In this document: positions 5,281-53,018 of the stretch, in pieces
How positions within the stretch are numbered: position 1 is the first letter of the stretch
Layout of the letters: every line of letters begins with the position of its first letter
Source of the DNA: Brucella haematophila
Lineage (GTDB): Bacteria; Pseudomonadota; Alphaproteobacteria; Rhizobiales; Rhizobiaceae
DNA length: 64,000 nt
Assembly (NCBI RefSeq): GCF_005938105.1
Contig: NZ_VCPE01000004.1
Location: 341,159-405,158 of the forward strand
Direction: 5' to 3'
Notes under the pieces: model-generated
The model's database searches: none
What the model was told of the DNA's origin: nothing
Seen by the model: only the letters and a program-made list of their open reading frames with translations
Made by a program: the position numbers and the translations under genes

Positions 5281-5621
5281 TGATGAAGCAAGACAGAACC
5301 AAATCAGTCACTCGCCCTCCCGCCATGTGCAAGCCTCCGACTGCGGGCGGCGCTTGTATTTCCCACGACAACCCTCCCGCAGATGTTCTTCACTGGATTC
5401 ACTGCTTGTGCTGTACGACGCTGAAATCCGCGCCCAGCCGGCTTCTGATTGCCAGCATATTCTTCTGGAAAGACACACCAATTTTAATAGATTCTCATGA
5501 ATGTAAAATATCTTACAAAAAAATAATTCGATATTGGGCTATATAGATCGAATATTATCGTGCTTATCTGTAAATGCATCGATGCATATTTACTTTTAAA
5601 ATTAATATTAGGATTTATATT
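5281..5621. other. AT-rich gap with no convincing gene
   Basis: The left half (5281-5500) is GC-richer and can be read as short Cys-containing frames, none with a good start or family resemblance. The right half is strongly A+T-rich and probably holds the promoter of the peptide gene at 5,622. Confidence 0.4.
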
Positions 5622-5795
5622 ATGAAGAAGTATTTAGTATATACCACTCTTGCACTTGCTACCATGGCTGCTTCTGCTGGTCAGTCTTATGCAAATCCCA
5701 TTCACGATGTTCAAAGCCAGCTATCTGCGAACGGCCCGGACAATAGCTTTATTTGCATCGTAACGCCTTTCGGCAAGTGGTGTCCATTTAAGTAA
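5622..5795 (+). CDS. Small exported peptide with two C-terminal cysteines (3)
   Basis: A 57-residue peptide. Its signal peptide MKKYLVYTTLALATMAASAG is followed by a likely cleavage after SYA, leaving about 33 residues ending FICIVTPFGKWCPFK (Cys45 and Cys54). I chose ATG 5622 over the in-frame ATG at 5574 because TTAGGA lies 8 nt upstream and the protein then begins with a normal signal peptide. It is the third member of a row of short exported Cys-loop peptides. Function unknown. Confidence 0.6.
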   Translation: MKKYLVYTTLALATMAASAGQSYANPIHDVQSQLSANGPDNSFICIVTPFGKWCPFK

Positions 5796-5834: not shown

Positions 5835-6758
5835 TCACATCAGCAGATAATCGACAGGCTGCGGGAGGTCCGGCAAATTGGCCTCCCCCAGGGCTTCCCG
5901 CAGGTTGATTTCGATCGTATCGGCAATTGCCTCTATCGGCAGATCGTTTGGCAGAACACCGAAAGGCTCTTCCAGTTCATCGCCCAGCGCATCAAGGCCG
6001 AAGAATGTATAGGCCACCAGCGTCGTCGCAAAAGGCGTGCCCCAGCCCAGCATGTCGGCAAAGCCGAACGGGATGAAGAAACAGAACAGATATGCCGTTC
6101 GGTGCAAAAGCAGCGTATAGCCGAAGGGCACAGGGGTGAACCGCAACCGCTCGCACGCCGCCTGTATCTCTGCCAGCGCGCTGACGGAGTTGTCGAGCGT
6201 CTGGAAATCAATCGGCTGGATATCGCCTTTCGCCCGCAGATCGGCCAGCACGCCGCCAAGCTTGCGCAGGATGAAATCGGGTCCGTTGCGGCTTGCGGCC
6301 ATGGCGGCATGTTCATCCGCCGACAGCCATTTATCCCGCTTTACGGCGCTATTGCCCGGACGAAGATGGACAACCATCGCCTGAGAAAAACCTATGCCAT
6401 AATGCAGCAACCGGGCGCGCGCGCCTTCTGCGCCGGGCACCACATCCAGAAACATCGTCTGACGCGCGAGATTGCGTGTCGTATAGACCAGCTTGCCCCA
6501 GATTTTGCGCGCTTCCCACCAGCGGTCGTAGCAGGCATTGTTGCGAAAACCGAGAAAGATCGACAGCGCAATGCCCAGCAAGGCGAAGGGTGTACCATTG
6601 TTGAATGCGGGCACCCAACCCGGAAAGACATGATGCCCGGCGACCACAAGCATCGACAGCAAAAACACTGCGCATATCTGCGGCAGTATGCGCAGCACAA
6701 TGGAGCCTTTGACGATGAAGAAGAGCTGCCACAAGGGCGGGCGCGGGCGAACAATCAT
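5835..6758 (-). CDS. Bestrophin-family (UPF0187/YneE-like) inner membrane channel
   Basis: A 307-residue membrane protein of the bestrophin family, which form pentameric anion or cation channels. Visible landmarks are an N-terminal hydrophobic pair of helices (IVLRILPQICAVFLLSMLVV), the family motif FALLGIALSIFLGFRNNACY followed by DRWWEARKIWG, and a C-terminal hydrophobic stretch (LLLHRTAYLFCFFIPFGFAD). Length and order match bacterial bestrophins. The gene stands alone, convergent with the small peptide gene and closed by a hairpin. Ion selectivity is not predictable here. Confidence 0.9.
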   Translation of the reverse strand: MIVRPRPPLWQLFFIVKGSIVLRILPQICAVFLLSMLVVAGHHVFPGWVPAFNNGTPFALLGIALSIFLGFRNNACYDRWWEARKIWGKLVYTTRNLARQTMFLDVVPGAEGARARLLHYGIGFSQAMVVHLRPGNSAVKRDKWLSADEHAAMAASRNGPDFILRKLGGVLADLRAKGDIQPIDFQTLDNSVSALAEIQAACERLRFTPVPFGYTLLLHRTAYLFCFFIPFGFADMLGWGTPFATTLVAYTFFGLDALGDELEEPFGVLPNDLPIEAIADTIEINLREALGEANLPDLPQPVDYLLM

Positions 6759-6940: not shown

Positions 6941-7360
6941 ATGTCGGTTCAGTCTTTCATTGATAGTATCGCTTCGCAGACCGGCATCGACTCTGCGGTC
7001 GCCGAACGCGTTGCAGGGATCATGTTTTCCGTCGTTCAACACGAAAGACCGGATCTGGCGACACGCCTTTTCGACAAAATTCCAGGCGCGGAAGAACTGG
7101 CCAACGCCAATGACGTCATGGCCAAAAATGCGGAAGGCGGCTTGTTCAGCTGGATCGCCAATGCTGCCGGCAATCTAGCGGGTGAAAGAATCGGCGCCTT
7201 GCTGAAAGGCCTCGCCGCACTGAAGGCGAGCGGCCTGACAATGGAACAGATCAAGCAGGTCGGCTTGCAGGCGCTCAGTCACCTTCGTGAACTGGACACC
7301 CTGCTCGCAGATGAGCTTAAGGCGCATTTTCGCAGTTTGAAGGCACGGTTCGGCCTTTGA
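6941..7360 (+). CDS. DUF2780-like hypothetical protein
   Basis: A soluble protein of 139 residues. The N-terminal part (VQSFIDSIASQTGIDSAVAE, then RVAGIMFSVVQHERPDLATRLFDKIPGAEEL) resembles DUF2780/VcgC-like proteins, with an oligomerising helical repeat and the IPGAEEL motif. The rest is helical and Gly/Ala-rich. An in-frame ATG at 6923 would add six residues; I prefer ATG 6941 because AGGA lies 5 nt before it. Function unknown. Confidence 0.65.
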   Translation: MSVQSFIDSIASQTGIDSAVAERVAGIMFSVVQHERPDLATRLFDKIPGAEELANANDVMAKNAEGGLFSWIANAAGNLAGERIGALLKGLAALKASGLTMEQIKQVGLQALSHLRELDTLLADELKAHFRSLKARFGL

Positions 7361-7484
7361 AAGCAGCACTACACCGCCCAAACTGCGACAGTTTTTGGGC
7401 TCCCAAAAAAGCCTGCTGGCCCCATTTGTCAACCACAGCCGACGCAGCTATCATGCACATATCGAAATCATTTTCTGGTGATGG

Positions 7485-8915
7485 ATGTCTGCTGATACGA
7501 CGGAAAAGAAGGTTACGCGTGCGCCGCGTCGCCGTACGCCTGCCTATGTCAAATCCCTGCGTGGGGTGAAGAACTGGAAGCAGGCAACCGAATGGCTAGC
7601 CTGGCGGGATATCGAAGACATCGAATGCATCACCCCCGATCAAGCGGGGGTTGCGCGCGGCAAAATGATGCCGTCCAAAAAATTCACGTCCAACACATCG
7701 CTGGCACTGCCATCCGCTGTCTTCATGACGACGATTTCCGGCGACTATCCGGAAGACGGCTACGGCTTCCATTATCCGGAAGACGATGGCGATCTGAGAC
7801 TTTTGCCCGACCTTTCCACTCTGTCGGCTGTTCCTTGGGAAAGCGACCCGACGGCGCAGGTGATCTGCGATCTGGTCTATCAGGACGGACGCGCTGTTGA
7901 ATTCACGCCGCGCAATGTGCTGCGCAATGTCGTTGCTGCTTACAACAAGCGTGGCCTGAAGCCGGTCGTAGCGCCGGAAATCGAATTCTATCTGGTGCGC
8001 AAGAACCCCGACCCGGATTATCCGCTGACCCCGCCGGTTGGCCGTTCGGGCCGCGCCATCGGCGGCGGACAGGGCTATTCGATTGCGGGCGTCAACGAGT
8101 TCGATGAACTCATCGATGACATCTACCATTTCTCCGAAGGTCAGGGTCTGGAGATCGACACGCTGATCCACGAAGAAGGCGCCGGTCAGCTGGAAATCAA
8201 CCTGCGCCATGGCGATCCTGTCGAATTGGCCGATCAGGTTTTCCTGTTCAAGCGCACGATCCGCGAGGCGGCGCTCAAACATGACATGTATGCCACCTTC
8301 ATGGCCAAGCCCATTCAGGGCCAGCCGGGTTCGGCGATGCATATCCACCAGTCGATCATCGACAAGAAGACGGGCCGCAACATTTTCACCAATGAGGATG
8401 GCAGCGAGAGCGAGGCCTTCCGCCACTTCATCGGCGGCATGCAGCGCCATGTGCCGAATGCTCTGGTAATGTTTGCGCCCTATGTGAATTCCTATCGTCG
8501 CCTGACGCCGGATGCCTCCGCGCCCGTCAACGTCAAATGGGGCTACGACAACCGCACCACCGCCTTCCGCGTGCCACGCTCCGACCCCAATGCGCGCCGC
8601 GTGGAAAACCGCATCCCCTCCTCCGACGCCAATCCCTATCTGGCGCTGGCGGCTTCGCTTGCCTGCGGTCTGATCGGCCTCGTCAACAAGATTGACGCGG
8701 AACAGCCCGCCACCACCAGCGTCAACACCAAGGAAGTCGAACTGCCGCGCGGCCTGATCGATGCCGTGGAATTGTTCGAAAGGGACGACGAACTGCGCAA
8801 CCTGATCGGCAGTTCCTTCGTCACGACCTATGCCGCCATCAAGCGCGCCGAGTTCGAAACCTTCATGGAAGTCATCAGCCCGTGGGAACGCGAGTTCCTG
8901 TTGCTCAATGTGTAG
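7485..8915 (+). CDS. puuA: Gamma-glutamylputrescine synthetase (glutamine synthetase family)
   Basis: A glutamine-synthetase-fold ligase of 476 residues that joins glutamate to putrescine using ATP, the first step of the Puu putrescine pathway. It has the beta-grasp N-terminal domain (AWRDIEDIECITPDQAGVARG) and catalytic-domain motifs EIEFYLVR, GAGQLEINLRHGDP, MAKPIQGQPGSAMHIHQS and NRIPSSDANPYLALAA. It lacks the adenylylation-site tail of GlnA. A gamma-glutamylputrescine oxidase-like gene follows, and a polyamine-binding protein lies at the window start. Related GS-like enzymes act on other amines, so the exact substrate is an inference. Confidence 0.85.
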   Translation: MSADTTEKKVTRAPRRRTPAYVKSLRGVKNWKQATEWLAWRDIEDIECITPDQAGVARGKMMPSKKFTSNTSLALPSAVFMTTISGDYPEDGYGFHYPEDDGDLRLLPDLSTLSAVPWESDPTAQVICDLVYQDGRAVEFTPRNVLRNVVAAYNKRGLKPVVAPEIEFYLVRKNPDPDYPLTPPVGRSGRAIGGGQGYSIAGVNEFDELIDDIYHFSEGQGLEIDTLIHEEGAGQLEINLRHGDPVELADQVFLFKRTIREAALKHDMYATFMAKPIQGQPGSAMHIHQSIIDKKTGRNIFTNEDGSESEAFRHFIGGMQRHVPNALVMFAPYVNSYRRLTPDASAPVNVKWGYDNRTTAFRVPRSDPNARRVENRIPSSDANPYLALAASLACGLIGLVNKIDAEQPATTSVNTKEVELPRGLIDAVELFERDDELRNLIGSSFVTTYAAIKRAEFETFMEVISPWEREFLLLNV

Positions 8916-48546: not shown

Positions 48547-50340
48547 TCAGAACGCGTCCGCAGGCAGCGCCATCATGCTATCCGCACCCGACTGGATGCG
48601 CGCGAGATGGGCGGCACTTTCCGGCATAATACGCTCGAAATAGTACCGTGCAGTGACGAGTTTCGCTTCAAGATAAGCCTTGTTGCCTTCGCCTGCCGCC
48701 AGCTTTTCTTCTGCGACCTTGGCCATGCGGCCCCACATCAGCCCCAGCGCAACCAGGCCGAACAGATGCATGTAGTCATTGGACGCAGCACCGGCATTGT
48801 CGGGCTTCGCCATGGCATTCTGCATCAGCCACATGGTGGCGGCCTGAAGATCGTTGAGACCTTTCTTCAGATGCTTGGTGAAGAAGGACAGCTTTTCATT
48901 GTCGCGATTGGCTTCGCAGAATTCGCCCACTTCCTTGAAGAAGGTCGTAACAGCACGGCCGCCATTCAGCGCCAGCTTGCGGCCGACCAGATCGAGCGCC
49001 TGAATACCGTTGGCGCCTTCATAGATCATGGCGATACGCGCATCGCGCACATACTGGCTCATGCCGTGTTCTTCGATATAGCCGTGGCCACCGAAGACCT
49101 GCTGAGCCATGACGGCATGTTCAAAACCCTTGTCGGTCAGAACGCCTTTCAGAACCGGCGTGAGCAGACCGACCAGATCGTCGGCGGCCTGACGCTCGGC
49201 CTCGTCACCGGAGCGGTGCGCAATGTCGGAGTTCAGCGCCGTCCAGAGGATGAACGCACGGCCTGCTTCGTTGAAAGCGCGGATCGTCATCAGGTTCCGA
49301 CGGATATCCGGATGCACAATAATCGGATCGGCCTTCTTTTCCGGCTCTTTCGCGCCGGAAAGGGCGCGGCCCTGAATGCGCTCGCGGGCATAGATCGCTG
49401 CATTCTGATAGGCGGTTTCGGCGATTGAAAGCCCCTGCAAGGCAACGCCCAGACGCGCCTCATTCATCATGGTGAACATGGCGCGCAGACCCTTATGCGC
49501 CTCACCGATCAGGAAGCCGGTCGCCTCGTCGTAATTCATGACGCAGGTGGAATTGCCGTGAATGCCCATCTTTTCTTCAATAGAACCACAGGAAACGCCG
49601 TTGCGTGTGCCCGGATTGCCATTCTCATCCAGAATGAACTTCGGCACGATGAAGAGCGAAATGCCCTTCACGCCTTCCGGTGCACCGTCGATACGGGCGA
49701 GCACCAGATGGATGATGTTGTCCGACATGTCGTGTTCGCCAGCCGAGATGAAAATCTTCTGGCCGGAAATCTTGTAGGAGCCGTCGCCCTGCGGCGCAGC
49801 ACTGGTGCGCAGAAGGCCCAAATCCGTGCCGCAATGCGGCTCGGTCAGGTTCATCGTGCCGGTCCAGGTGCCTTCCACCATCTTCGGCAGATAGGTATCC
49901 TTCTGCTCATCCGTGCCGTGCGCGAGGATTGCGGCAATCGCGCCCTGCGTCAGGCCGGGATACATGGTGAGCGCCATATTGGCGGACGACATATATTCGC
50001 CAACTGCGGTGTGTAGCAGATAAGGCAGGCCCTGGCCGCCATATTGCTCCGGCACGGCGAGGCCGAGCCAGCCGCCTTCGCGGTAGAGATCGAAGGCTTC
50101 CTTGAAACCCTTCGGCGTGGAGACACTGCCATCGGAGGCGCGCTTGCAGCCTTCGCGGTCGCCGCTGTGATTGACCGGAAACAGGGTGCCCTCAGCGAGC
50201 TTCGCACCTTCCGACAGGATCGCCTCGACCACGTCGGGCGACGCGTCGGCAAAGCCCGGCAGATTGTTGTAACGCTGATAGTTCAGAACGTCGTTGAGTA
50301 CGAAATTCGTATCTTCAACGGGCGCGCGATAGCTCGGCAT
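48547..50340 (-). CDS. Acyl-CoA dehydrogenase
   Basis: A flavoprotein of 597 residues that makes the first double bond in beta-oxidation. The N-terminal DUF-like extension ([17 protein letters not shown]) and C-terminal extra domain place it with the large DmdC/AcdA-type dehydrogenases rather than short-chain ones. The FAD-site motifs [13 protein letters not shown] and [20 protein letters not shown] are present, the latter containing the catalytic Glu region. GGAGG lies 6 nt before ATG 50340. It heads the acyl-CoA dehydrogenase-thiolase-FadB operon. Confidence 0.93.
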
Positions 50341-50845
50341 CAAAATCCTCCAAATTCATCACCTGAGCCAGCCCCGCGATAGACGGATACCGGCTCCAAA
50401 CCGCGTTTCACACCTGCTGCCTGCTTTATTAGAAAAACATCGTGACAGCCGATATGTTGCAACAAAAAAGGACGTTCTCACTCGAAAACCTGCCATTTTT
50501 GCAGCATTCTGGCCAGCCTCAACCCAATCTCAGGTCGAGCCGGACCAGTTCGGACTCAAAACTAGCGCAGTTTGACGTTTCCGTAAACGTCAAAATTTCG
50601 CGAGCAGATGCGTTGCGTGAGAAGGCAGTTTTGCGGGGGCCAAGATGGCCACGTGAATAGAGACCGCAGCAGTATGGCAGAAGCCTTTCGTCAAACCAAA
50701 AACTCGCCCGCAACAAGCAAGACCATACAAGCGATCGCTAATGTAAAATTGCCACCGCTCTTTTGCCGTTTCGCGAAGTAATAATTACTTCAATAATAAG
50801 CTGCCTTCATAAAAAGGCGCATTTTAAAAAATTGGGAGAAGTACA
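50341..50845. other. Promoter gap between beta-oxidation operon and peptide/oxygenase pair
   Basis: No gene is supported over the first 430 bases. The right end is A+T-rich and contains the 17-bp palindrome at 50,775-50,791. Promoters for both divergent transcripts must lie here. Confidence 0.5.
50775..50791. promoter_or_regulatory. Palindromic candidate operator before the peptide gene
   Basis: GAAGTAA-TAA-TTACTTC, with perfect 7-bp arms around three bases, 55 bases upstream of the peptide start. No regulator gene is adjacent, so the binding protein is unknown. Confidence 0.5.
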
Positions 50846-50974
50846 ATGCATACTAAAAGCAATCCTGCGATCAAGTCCGCGGTCGCATTTGAAGATGTGT
50901 TAAAGGGTCTTTCTGCAACACTCACGGCACCAGACAATACTGAAGACTGCCCAGGATTTACAAAGAGAAAATAA
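50846..50974 (+). CDS. 42-aa putative precursor peptide
   Basis: A short gene too small for ordinary prediction, encoding MHTKSNPAIKSAVAFEDVLK, then GLSATLTAPDNTEDCPGFTK and RK. GGGAGAA lies 5 nt before ATG 50846, a strong ribosome-binding site. Residues 9-28 look like an amphipathic leader helix. The Cys-containing acidic end PDNTEDCPGFTKRK has Asn, Asp, Pro and Lys/Arg side chains that 2-oxoglutarate oxygenases can hydroxylate. A terminator-like hairpin and an oxygenase gene follow. The precursor role is an inference from this layout. Confidence 0.6.
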   Translation: MHTKSNPAIKSAVAFEDVLKGLSATLTAPDNTEDCPGFTKRK

Positions 50975-51016
50975 TTAAAACTCTGCTTAAGCTCATTAAT
51001 CAATGCTGGATGGAGA

Positions 51017-51044
51017 TTAGGGGGTAATTCACCCCCTAATTTTT
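51017..51044 (+). terminator. Terminator/attenuator between peptide and oxygenase genes
   Basis: TTAGGGGGT (51017-51025), AATTC loop, ACCCCCTAA (51031-51039), then TTTTT: a textbook intrinsic terminator inside the two-gene unit, 42 nt after the peptide stop and 22 nt before the oxygenase start. It would give more peptide mRNA than enzyme mRNA. Confidence 0.85.
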
Positions 51045-51065
51045 CAATTGGAAAGGATGACTTTC

Positions 51066-52052
51066 ATGACGAAACATTTTGAAACACCGGTTATCTTTTC
51101 GCTCGATCCAGAGGCGGCAATTGATTTCTGCGATCAGTATTTGACGAAGAACGGCATCATGCTCTCGCTTGCAGATTTGCGCGACAAAGAGCTGACGGCG
51201 GACCTGGCAAGTCAGGCAGCATACGTTTTTGCCGATTTGCTCACAGACCTGCAATTTCAGTTGGATAGCCTCGAAATCGGGATCGTCGCGGTCGATATTC
51301 CATCCATCTTTGAAGATGCCACATTAGACGCCACTGCTGGAGCCTTGTTAGGTATCGCGCTGATTCAGGCGCTTATGCCGACCCTTTATGATGGGAAAAA
51401 CCAGACACCATTTTCTGTCTTTACGACATCGACAGATAGCCGCCAAAGGCTGGAGCGCGTCGGCTTGCAGGATCTGGTTCCGTTGGGCCGACTGGAGTTT
51501 CACTCCGACAGTTCTATCACCGGAAAGACCGTGTCCGTTCCCGACTATATAGCGCTTTATAACATCGCCATTAACTTTGAAGAGCGCGGCTGTTTCCACT
51601 GGGTGCCGACATGTAAAATCGACGGCATTGCCGAGCTTGTGAACAAGGTTGGCTTATCGAAAGAATATTATTTCAAGCTCAACCCCGCCGTCTACGAAGA
51701 TGGGCAGAATGATGTGATGGTCATAGAGCATCGCGTCAAAGCGGCCATTTTCAGCAGCGCCCAGAATGGTTCTACCACGACCTATATGAGCGGAAGTTTC
51801 GACGGGACCGTCGGTGAAGAACACACAGAATCCCGCGATCTTTTCACCGATATCGTAGACGCCATATCAGCAAACAAATTTCGTTATTCCATCCCGCAGG
51901 AAAGCCGCAGGCTGCTTATAATGAATAACGCAAACGGCTTTCATGCCCGCGATGGTTTTGAAAAGCCCTTGCCCGACGTTTCCGTCAACCGGGTTTACCT
52001 TCGCTGCACATCGGTGGCTGGCAAGGTGGTCGGCGAAGTTTTGGATGAGTGA
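51066..52052 (+). CDS. Clavaminate-synthase-like Fe(II)/2-oxoglutarate oxygenase
   Basis: A protein of 328 residues, about the length of clavaminate synthase (324). Metal ligands of the facial triad are visible: LEFHSD gives His146 and Asp148, and GFHARDGF gives distal His293. Sixteen and twenty residues later comes NRVYLR (Arg309, Arg313), the place where VioC-type enzymes have their RWLxR 2-oxoglutarate-binding arginines. Between the first two, PDYIALYNIA matches the family's PDYxxL segment. GAAAGGA lies 8 nt before ATG 51066. VioC, AsnO and clavaminate synthase act on free amino acids, so a peptide substrate here is an inference from the adjacent 42-aa gene. Confidence 0.78.
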   Translation: MTKHFETPVIFSLDPEAAIDFCDQYLTKNGIMLSLADLRDKELTADLASQAAYVFADLLTDLQFQLDSLEIGIVAVDIPSIFEDATLDATAGALLGIALIQALMPTLYDGKNQTPFSVFTTSTDSRQRLERVGLQDLVPLGRLEFHSDSSITGKTVSVPDYIALYNIAINFEERGCFHWVPTCKIDGIAELVNKVGLSKEYYFKLNPAVYEDGQNDVMVIEHRVKAAIFSSAQNGSTTTYMSGSFDGTVGEEHTESRDLFTDIVDAISANKFRYSIPQESRRLLIMNNANGFHARDGFEKPLPDVSVNRVYLRCTSVAGKVVGEVLDE

Positions 52053-52094
52053 TGCAGCCAAGCTCTCAACCAGCCAAGGCTGACCAGTGCCCAC

Positions 52095-53018
52095 TCAGTG
52101 GCTCAGCAGCGTCTGCATTCGGTCCTGATGGTGCAAGCCCACTTCCCGGACAATCTCGGCAATCTGCTTGAGTTGGGACGACAGCGGATTGCTTTTGCGC
52201 CAGACCAGACCAATCGTTCGCGACGGACGCGGCTCGGCAAGGCGGAACATGCAGACATTCGCCGCGAGCGTTTCCGTATAAACAGCCATCTCCGGCACGA
52301 GCGTGATGCCTATACCTGCGCCCACCATCTGGACAAGCGTAGACAGCGAGCTGCCTTCCATCAGTTCGCGCGGTGGCGCATCCGCAATATTGCAGAAAGA
52401 CAGGGCCTGATCGCGGAAACAATGCCCTTCTTCCAGAAGAAGCAACCGCATTTCATGCAGTTTTTCGGCGCTTGGAACCGGCTTGCCCGCATCTTCCAGC
52501 GGGCGCATCAGCACAAATTCCTCCTCAAAGAGCGGCACTTCCTGCAAGGAAGGCTCGGAAATCGGCAAAGCGACGATCGCCGCATCCAGCCGCGCTTCCA
52601 ACAGGTCTTCGATCAGCTTCTGGGTGATTGCCTCACGCGGGCGGGGCTCCAGCCCCGGATAACGCTGGGTCAGCGTCTTGATCACTTCCGGCAGAAGATA
52701 AGGCGCAACCGTCGGGATCACGCCGAGACGCAGACGACCGGTGAACGGGCCATGCGCCGCACGCGCCAGCTCTTCCAGCTCGTCAACCGAGCGCAAAATG
52801 CCGCGCACCCTTTCCGCGAATTCCTCACCGAGCCCGGTCAGGCGGATTTGCCTGCCGCCACGCTCCACCAGCGGCGCGCCGATCAGGTCTTCCAGCTCCT
52901 TGATCTGCAAGGACAATGCGGGTTGAGAGATGGAACATGCCGCCGCTGCACGCCCAAAATGGCTCAATCGCGCCAGCGAGTCGAAGTAGCGGAGGTGTTT
53001 CATCGAGAGGCCAATCAT
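52095..53018 (-). CDS. oxyR: Hydrogen peroxide sensor OxyR
   Basis: A LysR-type regulator of 307 residues. The helix-turn-helix is SHFGRAAAACSISQPALSLQ. The redox cysteines lie in EEGHCFRDQALSFC (Cys200 and Cys209), matching the GHCLRDQ...C segment of E. coli OxyR, so it should sense peroxide through a disulfide. It is divergent from katG, its expected target. An in-frame ATG at 53003 is an alternative start. Confidence 0.95.
   Translation of the reverse strand: MIGLSMKHLRYFDSLARLSHFGRAAAACSISQPALSLQIKELEDLIGAPLVERGGRQIRLTGLGEEFAERVRGILRSVDELEELARAAHGPFTGRLRLGVIPTVAPYLLPEVIKTLTQRYPGLEPRPREAITQKLIEDLLEARLDAAIVALPISEPSLQEVPLFEEEFVLMRPLEDAGKPVPSAEKLHEMRLLLLEEGHCFRDQALSFCNIADAPPRELMEGSSLSTLVQMVGAGIGITLVPEMAVYTETLAANVCMFRLAEPRPSRTIGLVWRKSNPLSSQLKQIAEIVREVGLHHQDRMQTLLSH

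What the first reader, a model, noticed from the sequence alone, without database searches (positions are those of the whole stretch)
50846..52052. 42-aa peptide plus clavaminate-synthase-like oxygenase: a candidate two-gene modified-peptide (RiPP-like) system
Seen: a 42-codon gene with a strong ribosome-binding site is followed by an intrinsic terminator and then by an enzyme with His146-x-Asp148, distal His293 and the paired arginines 309/313 of the clavaminate synthase/VioC/AsnO group. Known: that group hydroxylates or cyclises free amino-acid side chains (Arg, Asn, the clavulanate precursor). Inferred: the oxygenase modifies the small peptide, probably at its Asp/Asn/Pro/Lys-rich end. I know of no described peptide system built from just this pair.
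Basis: partly seen in the sequence, partly recalled or inferred. Interest (0 to 1): 0.85.

Follow-up and report, generated by a model that had tools for sequence, protein, structure and literature searches.

The report
Cysteine peptide with its own oxygenase
A tiny gene for a 42-residue peptide sits beside a gene for an iron-dependent oxidising enzyme, and relatives of the enzyme in other bacteria also sit beside such a peptide carrying a cysteine, so the pair looks like an undescribed kind of machine for making modified peptides.

Summary
The 42-aa ORF (50846-50974), a terminator-like hairpin and a TauD-like oxygenase (51066-52052) are all there, in an Ochrobactrum-type genome. The coupling holds beyond the window: all 9 intact enzymes found (the window's and 8 relatives at 27-91% identity, in Ochrobactrum-type and Rhizobiaceae genomes, Paracoccus and Calothrix) have a small ORF directly upstream with a Cys near its end. 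Most relatives carry PEC(T/S/N); the window clade has CPGF-type ends. A stem reached by at most 4 of 100 shuffles lies between the genes at 11 of 11 loci. The peptide is conserved at the amino-acid level (dN<dS in 10 of 10 pairs). Several relatives carry export genes: ABC, MFS, or in Rhizobium lusitanum a C39-peptidase ABC exporter with a Gly-Gly-type precursor. G016 keeps only about 39 residues of the enzyme, and its peptide has lost the Cys.

Best reading: a minimal RiPP-like system in which an Fe(II)/2-oxoglutarate enzyme oxidises a leader-bearing peptide, probably at or near the Cys. No chemistry is shown, and clavaminate-synthase membership was not established. Ten searches of an open-licence library found no description; one alpha-KG Cys-Tyr RiPP cross-linker is in print.

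The parts
50800..50818 (+). short inverted repeat GCTGCCTTCATAAAAAGGC upstream of the peptide gene; possible operator or 5'-UTR hairpin
   Evidence: found by regex in 4 of 5 window-clade upstream slices (the G016 slice was misplaced) and seen in all 5 rows of the alignment
50834..50838 (+). ribosome-binding site (GGGAG) of the peptide gene
   Evidence: sequence; kept in all 5 window-clade rows
50846..50974 (+). 42-aa precursor peptide gene
   Evidence: homologues at the same place in G030, G024, G021, G016; dN<dS in 10 of 10 pairs
50885..50923 (+). conserved leader part AFEDVLKGLSATL (residues 14-26), alignable with KGLSVTLT / NGLSITLT of other precursors
   Evidence: window peptide vs G020, 0 of 2000 shuffles reach the score; vs G868, 0 of 2000
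50948..50950 (+). core Cys35 codon (DCPGF); a Cys is the one residue found in the end part of the precursors of all 9 intact enzymes
   Evidence: read by eye; the MAFFT alignment does not put the window-clade Cys and the PEC Cys in one column; Cys lost in G016
51020..51037 (+). terminator-like hairpin between the genes, read here as a partial terminator that keeps peptide in excess over enzyme
   Evidence: best stem reached by 0-4 of 100 shuffles at 11 of 11 loci; T-rich tail, by eye, at 9 of 11
51050..51056 (+). ribosome-binding site (GGAAAGG) of the oxygenase gene
   Evidence: sequence
51066..52052 (+). 328-aa TauD-like oxygenase, proposed Fe(II)/2-oxoglutarate-dependent
   Evidence: Pfam TauD E 9.4e-4, below the curated cut-off; 8 full-length relatives 27-91% identical
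51501..51509 (+). H146-S147-D148, proposed first two iron ligands
   Evidence: H and D invariant in 9 of 9 aligned enzymes
51942..51944 (+). H293, proposed distal iron ligand, in the invariant block GFHARD
51990..52004 (+). R309 and R313, proposed 2-oxoglutarate-binding arginines
   Evidence: invariant in 9 of 9; the role is recalled from TauD/VioC, not tested

Best explanation
A minimal RiPP-like system. The small gene encodes a precursor with a leader (residues about 1-27, conserved AFEDVLKG(L/I)S) and a short core with a Cys. The second gene encodes a divergent TauD-like oxygenase, which binds the leader and, using Fe(II), O2 and 2-oxoglutarate, oxidises the core, most likely at the Cys or a residue near it (hydroxylation, desaturation or cross-linking). 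The hairpin between the genes lowers read-through so that substrate exceeds catalyst. In several relatives the product is exported by an adjacent ABC, MFS or C39-peptidase ABC transporter, in R. lusitanum probably with cleavage after Gly-Gly. In the window clade no linked exporter is seen and the core differs, so the product either uses unlinked transport and protease or acts inside the cell. Shown: gene coupling, conservation, hairpin, export genes beside relatives, joint decay in G016. Inferred: that the enzyme acts on the peptide, cofactor use, the site, the chemistry, the hairpin's role and the export.
For: 9 of 9 intact enzymes have a Cys-bearing small ORF directly upstream. The 5 damaged loci (G017, two in G019, G016, R. 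lusitanum) also show the peptide or its traces. PEC within a short ATG-started ORF in the 450 nt upstream was seen at 6 of 8 loci tested; Markov-resampled DNA gives it in 1-22 of 4000 per locus (the motif was chosen after seeing it). Peptides of different clades are similar beyond shuffles: window vs G020 0 of 2000, vs G868 0, vs A. vitis 2. dN<dS in 10 of 10 pairs. In 35 genus genomes the window peptide matches below E 1e-3 in 5, all with the enzyme or its remnant. Stem between the genes at 11 of 11 loci. Export genes: ABC gene adjacent to the enzyme in G868 and G020, and, broken, in G017 and G019; MFS genes 32% identical to one another in A. vitis and Paracoccus; M24 peptidase directly downstream in Paracoccus; Gly-Gly-type precursor, radical SAM, HlyD and C39-ABC in R. 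lusitanum. G016: enzyme remnant and a peptide with leader but no Cys.
Against: No chemistry, expression or product data. No linked exporter or peptidase beside the window pair; the best full-length match to the cluster ABC exporter in G000 is 33% (47% over the ATP-binding part of another gene). The window core lacks PEC, and MAFFT does not align its Cys with the PEC Cys. The Calothrix peptide is not significantly similar to others tested (1143 and 147 of 2000 shuffles reach the score) and starts, by eye, like a secretory signal; window vs Paracoccus is weak (65 of 2000). Three genus genomes with the enzyme family (G020, G019, G017) give only weak or no matches to the window peptide (E 0.1, 0.25, none). 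Folding z-scores of the gap are modest at four loci (-1.3 to -1.6). The oxygenase assignment rests on a sub-threshold TauD match and invariant residues; a profile comparison with 28 TauD proteins was no better than shuffles, and the structure prediction failed (pLDDT 32).
Confidence: 0.76

Rival explanations
1. The small ORF is a translated leader peptide that, with the hairpin behind it, controls transcription of the oxygenase (attenuation), and the enzyme works on a free amino acid or other small molecule.
For: The order short ORF, terminator-like hairpin, enzyme gene is what an attenuator looks like, and a stem is there at 11 of 11 loci.
Against: The amino-acid sequence is similar across clades with dN<dS. 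No run of regulatory codons is seen in the window ORF, which has one Cys codon. The R. lusitanum peptide has a Gly-Gly motif beside a C39-peptidase ABC exporter. The Cys is lost where only an enzyme remnant remains.
Confidence: 0.08
2. The oxygenase is only one tailoring step of a larger peptide pathway whose main enzymes lie elsewhere in the genome.
For: R. lusitanum has a radical SAM gene and an unidentified 528-aa gene in the same cluster; characterised alpha-KG enzymes in RiPP pathways are largely hydroxylases (introduction of PMC12636437, read).
Against: No other recognisable modifying enzyme was seen next to the precursor at the 9 intact loci in the flanks looked at; but flanks were short for some loci and many flanking ORFs were not run against family libraries.
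Confidence: 0.15
3. The product is a metal- or redox-handling peptide kept in the cell rather than a secreted compound; in the window it sits beside a LysR-type regulator and a peroxidase gene.
For: Neighbours in the window; no linked exporter there; one Cys and a Lys-rich end.
Against: G868 and G020 carry the pair beside an ABC exporter; in G001 and G029 the stretch fetched next to the regulator gene matches the window only over that gene, so the place looks variable rather than functionally fixed.
Confidence: 0.2

Closest known systems
alpha-KG dioxygenase that cross-links Cys and Tyr in a RiPP (Xia et al., JACS 2025, doi 10.1021/jacs.5c07332; title seen in reference lists; the Cys-Tyr link told in one sentence of the introduction of PMC12636437; paper not held)
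   Same: an alpha-KG iron enzyme acting on a ribosomal peptide, with Cys as one partner
   Different: no Tyr in the core part of 7 precursors (G000, G030, G024, G020, G868, A. vitis, Paracoccus; sequences), so a Cys-Tyr link cannot be the general product here; relation of the enzymes could not be tested
2OG-Fe(II) tailoring oxygenases of graspetides (corallotide CorC; SmaO/SmaX; passages of PMC13097080)
   Same: 2OG enzymes oxidising a precursor peptide
   Different: there a graspetide synthetase is in the cluster; none was seen beside the window pair
MNIO (DUF692) and alpha-KG-HExxH RiPP enzymes (PMC12636437 introduction, PMC13060819 passages)
   Same: non-heme iron enzymes acting on small precursors
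   Different: this enzyme has H-x-D...H...R...R and a weak TauD match instead of an HExxH site
TauD/clavaminate synthase/VioC/AsnO oxygenases
   Same: order of proposed iron and 2-oxoglutarate ligands (recalled)
   Different: Pfam match below cut-off, no PDB sequence match, H-x-D not the H-x-E of the clavaminate group (recalled), a dedicated peptide beside it
Gly-Gly-leader peptides with C39-peptidase ABC exporters (class II bacteriocin/microcin type)
   Same: the R. lusitanum relative has this arrangement
   Different: seen only at that relative, whose oxygenase gene is frame-broken; not seen beside the window pair

Membership tests
RiPP biosynthetic system | ribosomally encoded precursor gene next to a modifying enzyme | tested here: met
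   9 of 9 intact enzymes have the small ORF; peptide with dN<dS; that the enzyme modifies it is not tested
RiPP biosynthetic system | leader conserved more than core, with a recurrent residue in the core | tested here: met
   leader similarity between clades; in the window clade core differences fall on all codon positions, e.g. 5/2/4 for G000-G030 against 1/3/9 in the leader; Cys in every core by eye
RiPP biosynthetic system | enzyme-dependent modification of the peptide | not testable with these tools
   needs co-expression and mass spectrometry
RiPP biosynthetic system | leader removal and export genes | tested here: inconclusive
   beside several relatives; not beside the window pair
TauD (PF02668) oxygenase family | score over Pfam's gathering cut-off | tested here: not met
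   19.6 bits against 27; 4 of 9 members match at E up to 1
TauD (PF02668) oxygenase family | H-x-D...H facial triad and a distal Arg | tested here: met
   invariant in 9 of 9; the motif itself is recalled
Clavaminate synthase/VioC/AsnO group | detectable sequence relation to solved members | tested here: not met
   no PDB sequence at E up to 1 with the single protein; with the 9-row profile only an unrelated designed PX domain at E 0.4; a sequence search can miss distant relatives
Clavaminate synthase/VioC/AsnO group | fold of that group | tested here: inconclusive
   structure prediction failed, pLDDT 32; no fold search made
Transcription attenuation leader peptide | run of regulatory codons in the ORF | tested here: not met
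   no such run, single Cys codon in the window ORF

The most novel reading that the evidence does not exclude
A new RiPP class defined by one stand-alone TauD-like alpha-KG oxygenase and a precursor with a PEC-type core, in which the enzyme oxidises the core Cys or cross-links it. It has spread by plasmids and horizontal transfer among alphaproteobacteria and to a cyanobacterium, and in the Ochrobactrum clade it has become exporter-free with a new core sequence.
Probability: 0.42. Interest if true: 0.8.

Novelty: new variant of a known kind. Interest (0 to 1): 0.64.

Why it matters
Alpha-KG enzymes are described as rare in RiPP pathways and largely confined to hydroxylation (PMC12636437 introduction). 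Here one such enzyme, over the cut-off of no family model searched, travels with its own small peptide in alphaproteobacteria and, less surely, a cyanobacterium. That gives a two-gene system small enough to test directly, a candidate site (Cys), natural core variants (PECTD, DCPGF, DQCFG, RDCDGF) and a natural decay case (G016). It can be used to ask how a stand-alone 2OG enzyme reads a leader and what it does near a cysteine.

Tried and rejected
Profile comparison (hhalign) with TauD proteins: a first run with a wrong option and wrong ORF picks is discarded. The corrected run used 28 of 29 sequences (L062 dropped for a stop; L064 not included) and scored 14.7 against 13.0-18.6 for 10 column-shuffled controls, although it did pair HSD with the TauD HSD and the distal His. 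hmmsearch of the family profile on the same 28 gave best E 0.011, none over the inclusion threshold. Viral contigs, phages, PHROGs, NCBIfam for the window proteins (one search gave only sub-cut-off matches for the related oxygenases and peptides) and Rfam for 50340-52100 gave no relative. The ORFs of L064, a sub-threshold TauD match, were read by eye and set aside without a comparison; its genome G441 had no match to the family.

The gene label vatH on the 40-residue A. vitis peptide is rejected as a likely labelling error: the peptide is far too short for an acetyltransferase.

In the PEC test R. lusitanum came out negative because its ORF starts with GTG and the script asked for ATG; the window is negative because its core is DCPGF. 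Ten library searches showed no description of this pair in the titles and abstracts listed; one search listed 25 of 321 papers. The hit PMC12338566 for 'TfdA' was a daptide gene name (passages).

Full report
OBSERVATION. The 42-aa ORF at 50846-50974 has a GGGAG ribosome-binding site. A G+C-rich hairpin with T-rich sequence follows at 51020-51037, then an oxygenase ORF whose best start is ATG 51066. The pair is lower in G+C than its surroundings (peptide 43.4%, enzyme 50.7%, window 57.5%). It sits between an acyl-CoA dehydrogenase gene and a LysR-type regulator gene followed by a peroxidase gene (the names OxyR and KatG are my reading). No sigma-70-like promoter was found on the + strand there.

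THE ENZYME. Pfam gives only TauD at E 9.4e-4, below its cut-off. NCBIfam, PHROGs and PDB sequences give nothing for it; a 9-row profile against the PDB gives only an unrelated designed domain at E 0.4. H146, D148, H293, R309 and R313 are invariant in the 9 intact enzymes aligned, as is the block GFHARD. A comparison with 28 TauD proteins was no better than shuffled controls, though the HSD and distal His fell in register, and the structure prediction failed. I therefore call it TauD-like; clavaminate-synthase membership is not shown.

DISTRIBUTION (own genome counted each time). Matches: 8 of 60 relatives; 8 of 35 genomes of the genus, remnants included; 4 of 394 of the family; 1 of 397 of the order, 1 of 385 of the class and 1 of 398 of the phylum, in these three only the window's own genome; 1 of 20 of the G868 genus (there the hit is G868 itself). 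These searches use a loose first look and samples, so they are lower bounds. Also 4 of 72,556 plasmid records (the same four with two other queries), 0 of 50,697 phage records, none in viral contigs, and 3 loci in genome contigs with one protein query. The family is rare and scattered: an A. vitis pAt plasmid, a 10.5-kb Paracoccus plasmid, a Calothrix plasmid and an R. lusitanum plasmid.

THE PEPTIDE FAMILY. All 9 intact enzymes (G000, G030, G024, G021, G020, G868, A. vitis, Paracoccus, Calothrix) have a small ORF directly upstream that has a Cys near its end. The window clade has DCPGF, DCPGF, GCPGF and DQCFG; G021 has a second such ORF further upstream with RDCDGF. The others have RPECTD (three), APECTD and SPECSV. 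Five further loci are damaged: G017 lacks enzyme residues about 140-204, which include H146 and D148; G019 has two broken copies; G016 has about 39 residues of the enzyme left; the R. lusitanum enzyme is frame-broken. They still show the peptide or its traces; in one G019 copy the peptide ORF is itself interrupted. By eye only the Cys recurs in all cores; MAFFT does not put the window-clade Cys and the PEC Cys in one column, so their equivalence is my reading. In G016 the leader survives and the Cys is gone (GRMGF).

STATISTICS. dN<dS in 10 of 10 pairs among five window-clade peptides, for the leader part and for the whole (pairs are not independent). Window peptide vs G020: 0 of 2000 shuffles reach the score; vs G868 0; vs A. 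vitis 2; vs Paracoccus 65. Of 14 pairs tested, Calothrix is not significant against A. vitis (1143) or Paracoccus (147), so its inclusion rests on position, PEC and stem; R. lusitanum gives 3 against Paracoccus and 18 against A. vitis. PEC in a short ATG-started ORF was seen at 6 of 8 loci; Markov-resampled DNA gives it in 1-22 of 4000 per locus, the motif having been chosen after it was seen. R. lusitanum was missed because of a GTG start, and the window has no PEC. In 35 genus genomes the window peptide matches below E 1e-3 in 5, all holding the enzyme or its remnant; G020 and G019 match only at E 0.1 and 0.25 and G017 not at all.

THE HAIRPIN. The best stem in the gap is reached by 0-4 of 100 shuffles at 11 of 11 loci tested; whole-gap folding z-scores run from -1.3 to -4.1. 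By eye 9 of 11 have a T-rich tail, R. lusitanum has none and Calothrix a poor one. I read it as a partial terminator that keeps precursor in excess. That is inference.

NEIGHBOURS. An ABC exporter gene is adjacent to the enzyme in G868 and G020, and broken ones in G017 and G019. A. vitis has an MFS gene directly downstream and Paracoccus a divergent MFS gene upstream, 32% identical to one another; Paracoccus also has an M24 peptidase gene directly downstream. In R. lusitanum the precursor has a Gly-Gly motif and the cluster holds radical SAM, HlyD and C39-peptidase ABC genes. In the window clade no orthologue of the cluster exporter is seen: the best full-length match in G000 is 33%, and 47% over the ATP-binding part of another gene. 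The regulator gene beside the pair was matched at DNA level in 7 of 35 genus genomes; in two of them without the pair, G001 and G029, the stretch fetched matches the window only over that gene.

EVOLUTION. A tree of the 9 enzymes puts the four window-clade rows together (100/100), with G020 next (89/92) and G868, A. vitis, Paracoccus and Calothrix outside; the PEC rows lie on one side of a branch. Rooted at the midpoint only, this suggests that PEC is older and that the window clade changed its core and lacks the exporter. Calothrix, Paracoccus and G868 are long branches, so their place is unsure.

MECHANISM AND LIMITS. The best-supported reading is a leader-guided Fe(II)/2-oxoglutarate oxidation of a ribosomal peptide at or near a Cys. 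Coupling is shown; modification is not. The closest published case is an alpha-KG enzyme linking Cys and Tyr (one sentence in the introduction of PMC12636437; the paper itself not held). Seven of the cores here have no Tyr (sequences), so that exact reaction cannot be general. Other alpha-KG RiPP enzymes seen in passages are tailoring hydroxylases of graspetides (PMC13097080) and HExxH enzymes (PMC13060819). Ten searches of an open-licence library listed no description of this pair, but subscription papers are mostly missing from it.

Noticed in passing
L018 (O. teleogrylli) about 5490-5675; ORF 990-1175 of L004: A second leader-similar small ORF (61 aa, RDCDGF) lies upstream of the first precursor: one enzyme, two candidate substrates (0 of 2000 shuffles against the window peptide).
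   Followed up: partly
L041 (G016) 5898-6212: Enzyme reduced to about 39 residues; the peptide keeps leader and the hairpin but has lost the Cys. A natural decay case.
   Followed up: yes
L038 (G017) 7343-8131, minus strand: Enzyme ORF open but with about 65 residues missing, including the H-x-D motif, beside a PEC peptide and a broken ABC exporter gene.
   Followed up: partly
G019 C1 about 10 kb and 2.43 Mb (L040, L039): Two damaged copies of the same cassette at two places of one genome.
   Followed up: no
L076 (R. lusitanum plasmid p_2) 1419-9466: Larger cluster with a Gly-Gly-type precursor (QPECND), frame-broken oxygenase, radical SAM, an unidentified 528-aa protein, HlyD and C39-ABC; possibly a two-enzyme RiPP.
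   Followed up: partly
window 50800-50818: Short inverted repeat upstream of the peptide gene, kept in the window clade; could be an operator.
   Followed up: no
L019 3757-3879: PLSDB labels the A. vitis precursor a vatH resistance gene at 100% identity; probably an artefact of a very short ORF.
   Followed up: partly
L042 (G001) and L043 (G029): The stretch fetched next to the LysR-type regulator gene matches the window only over that gene, which suggests a variable site.
   Followed up: partly
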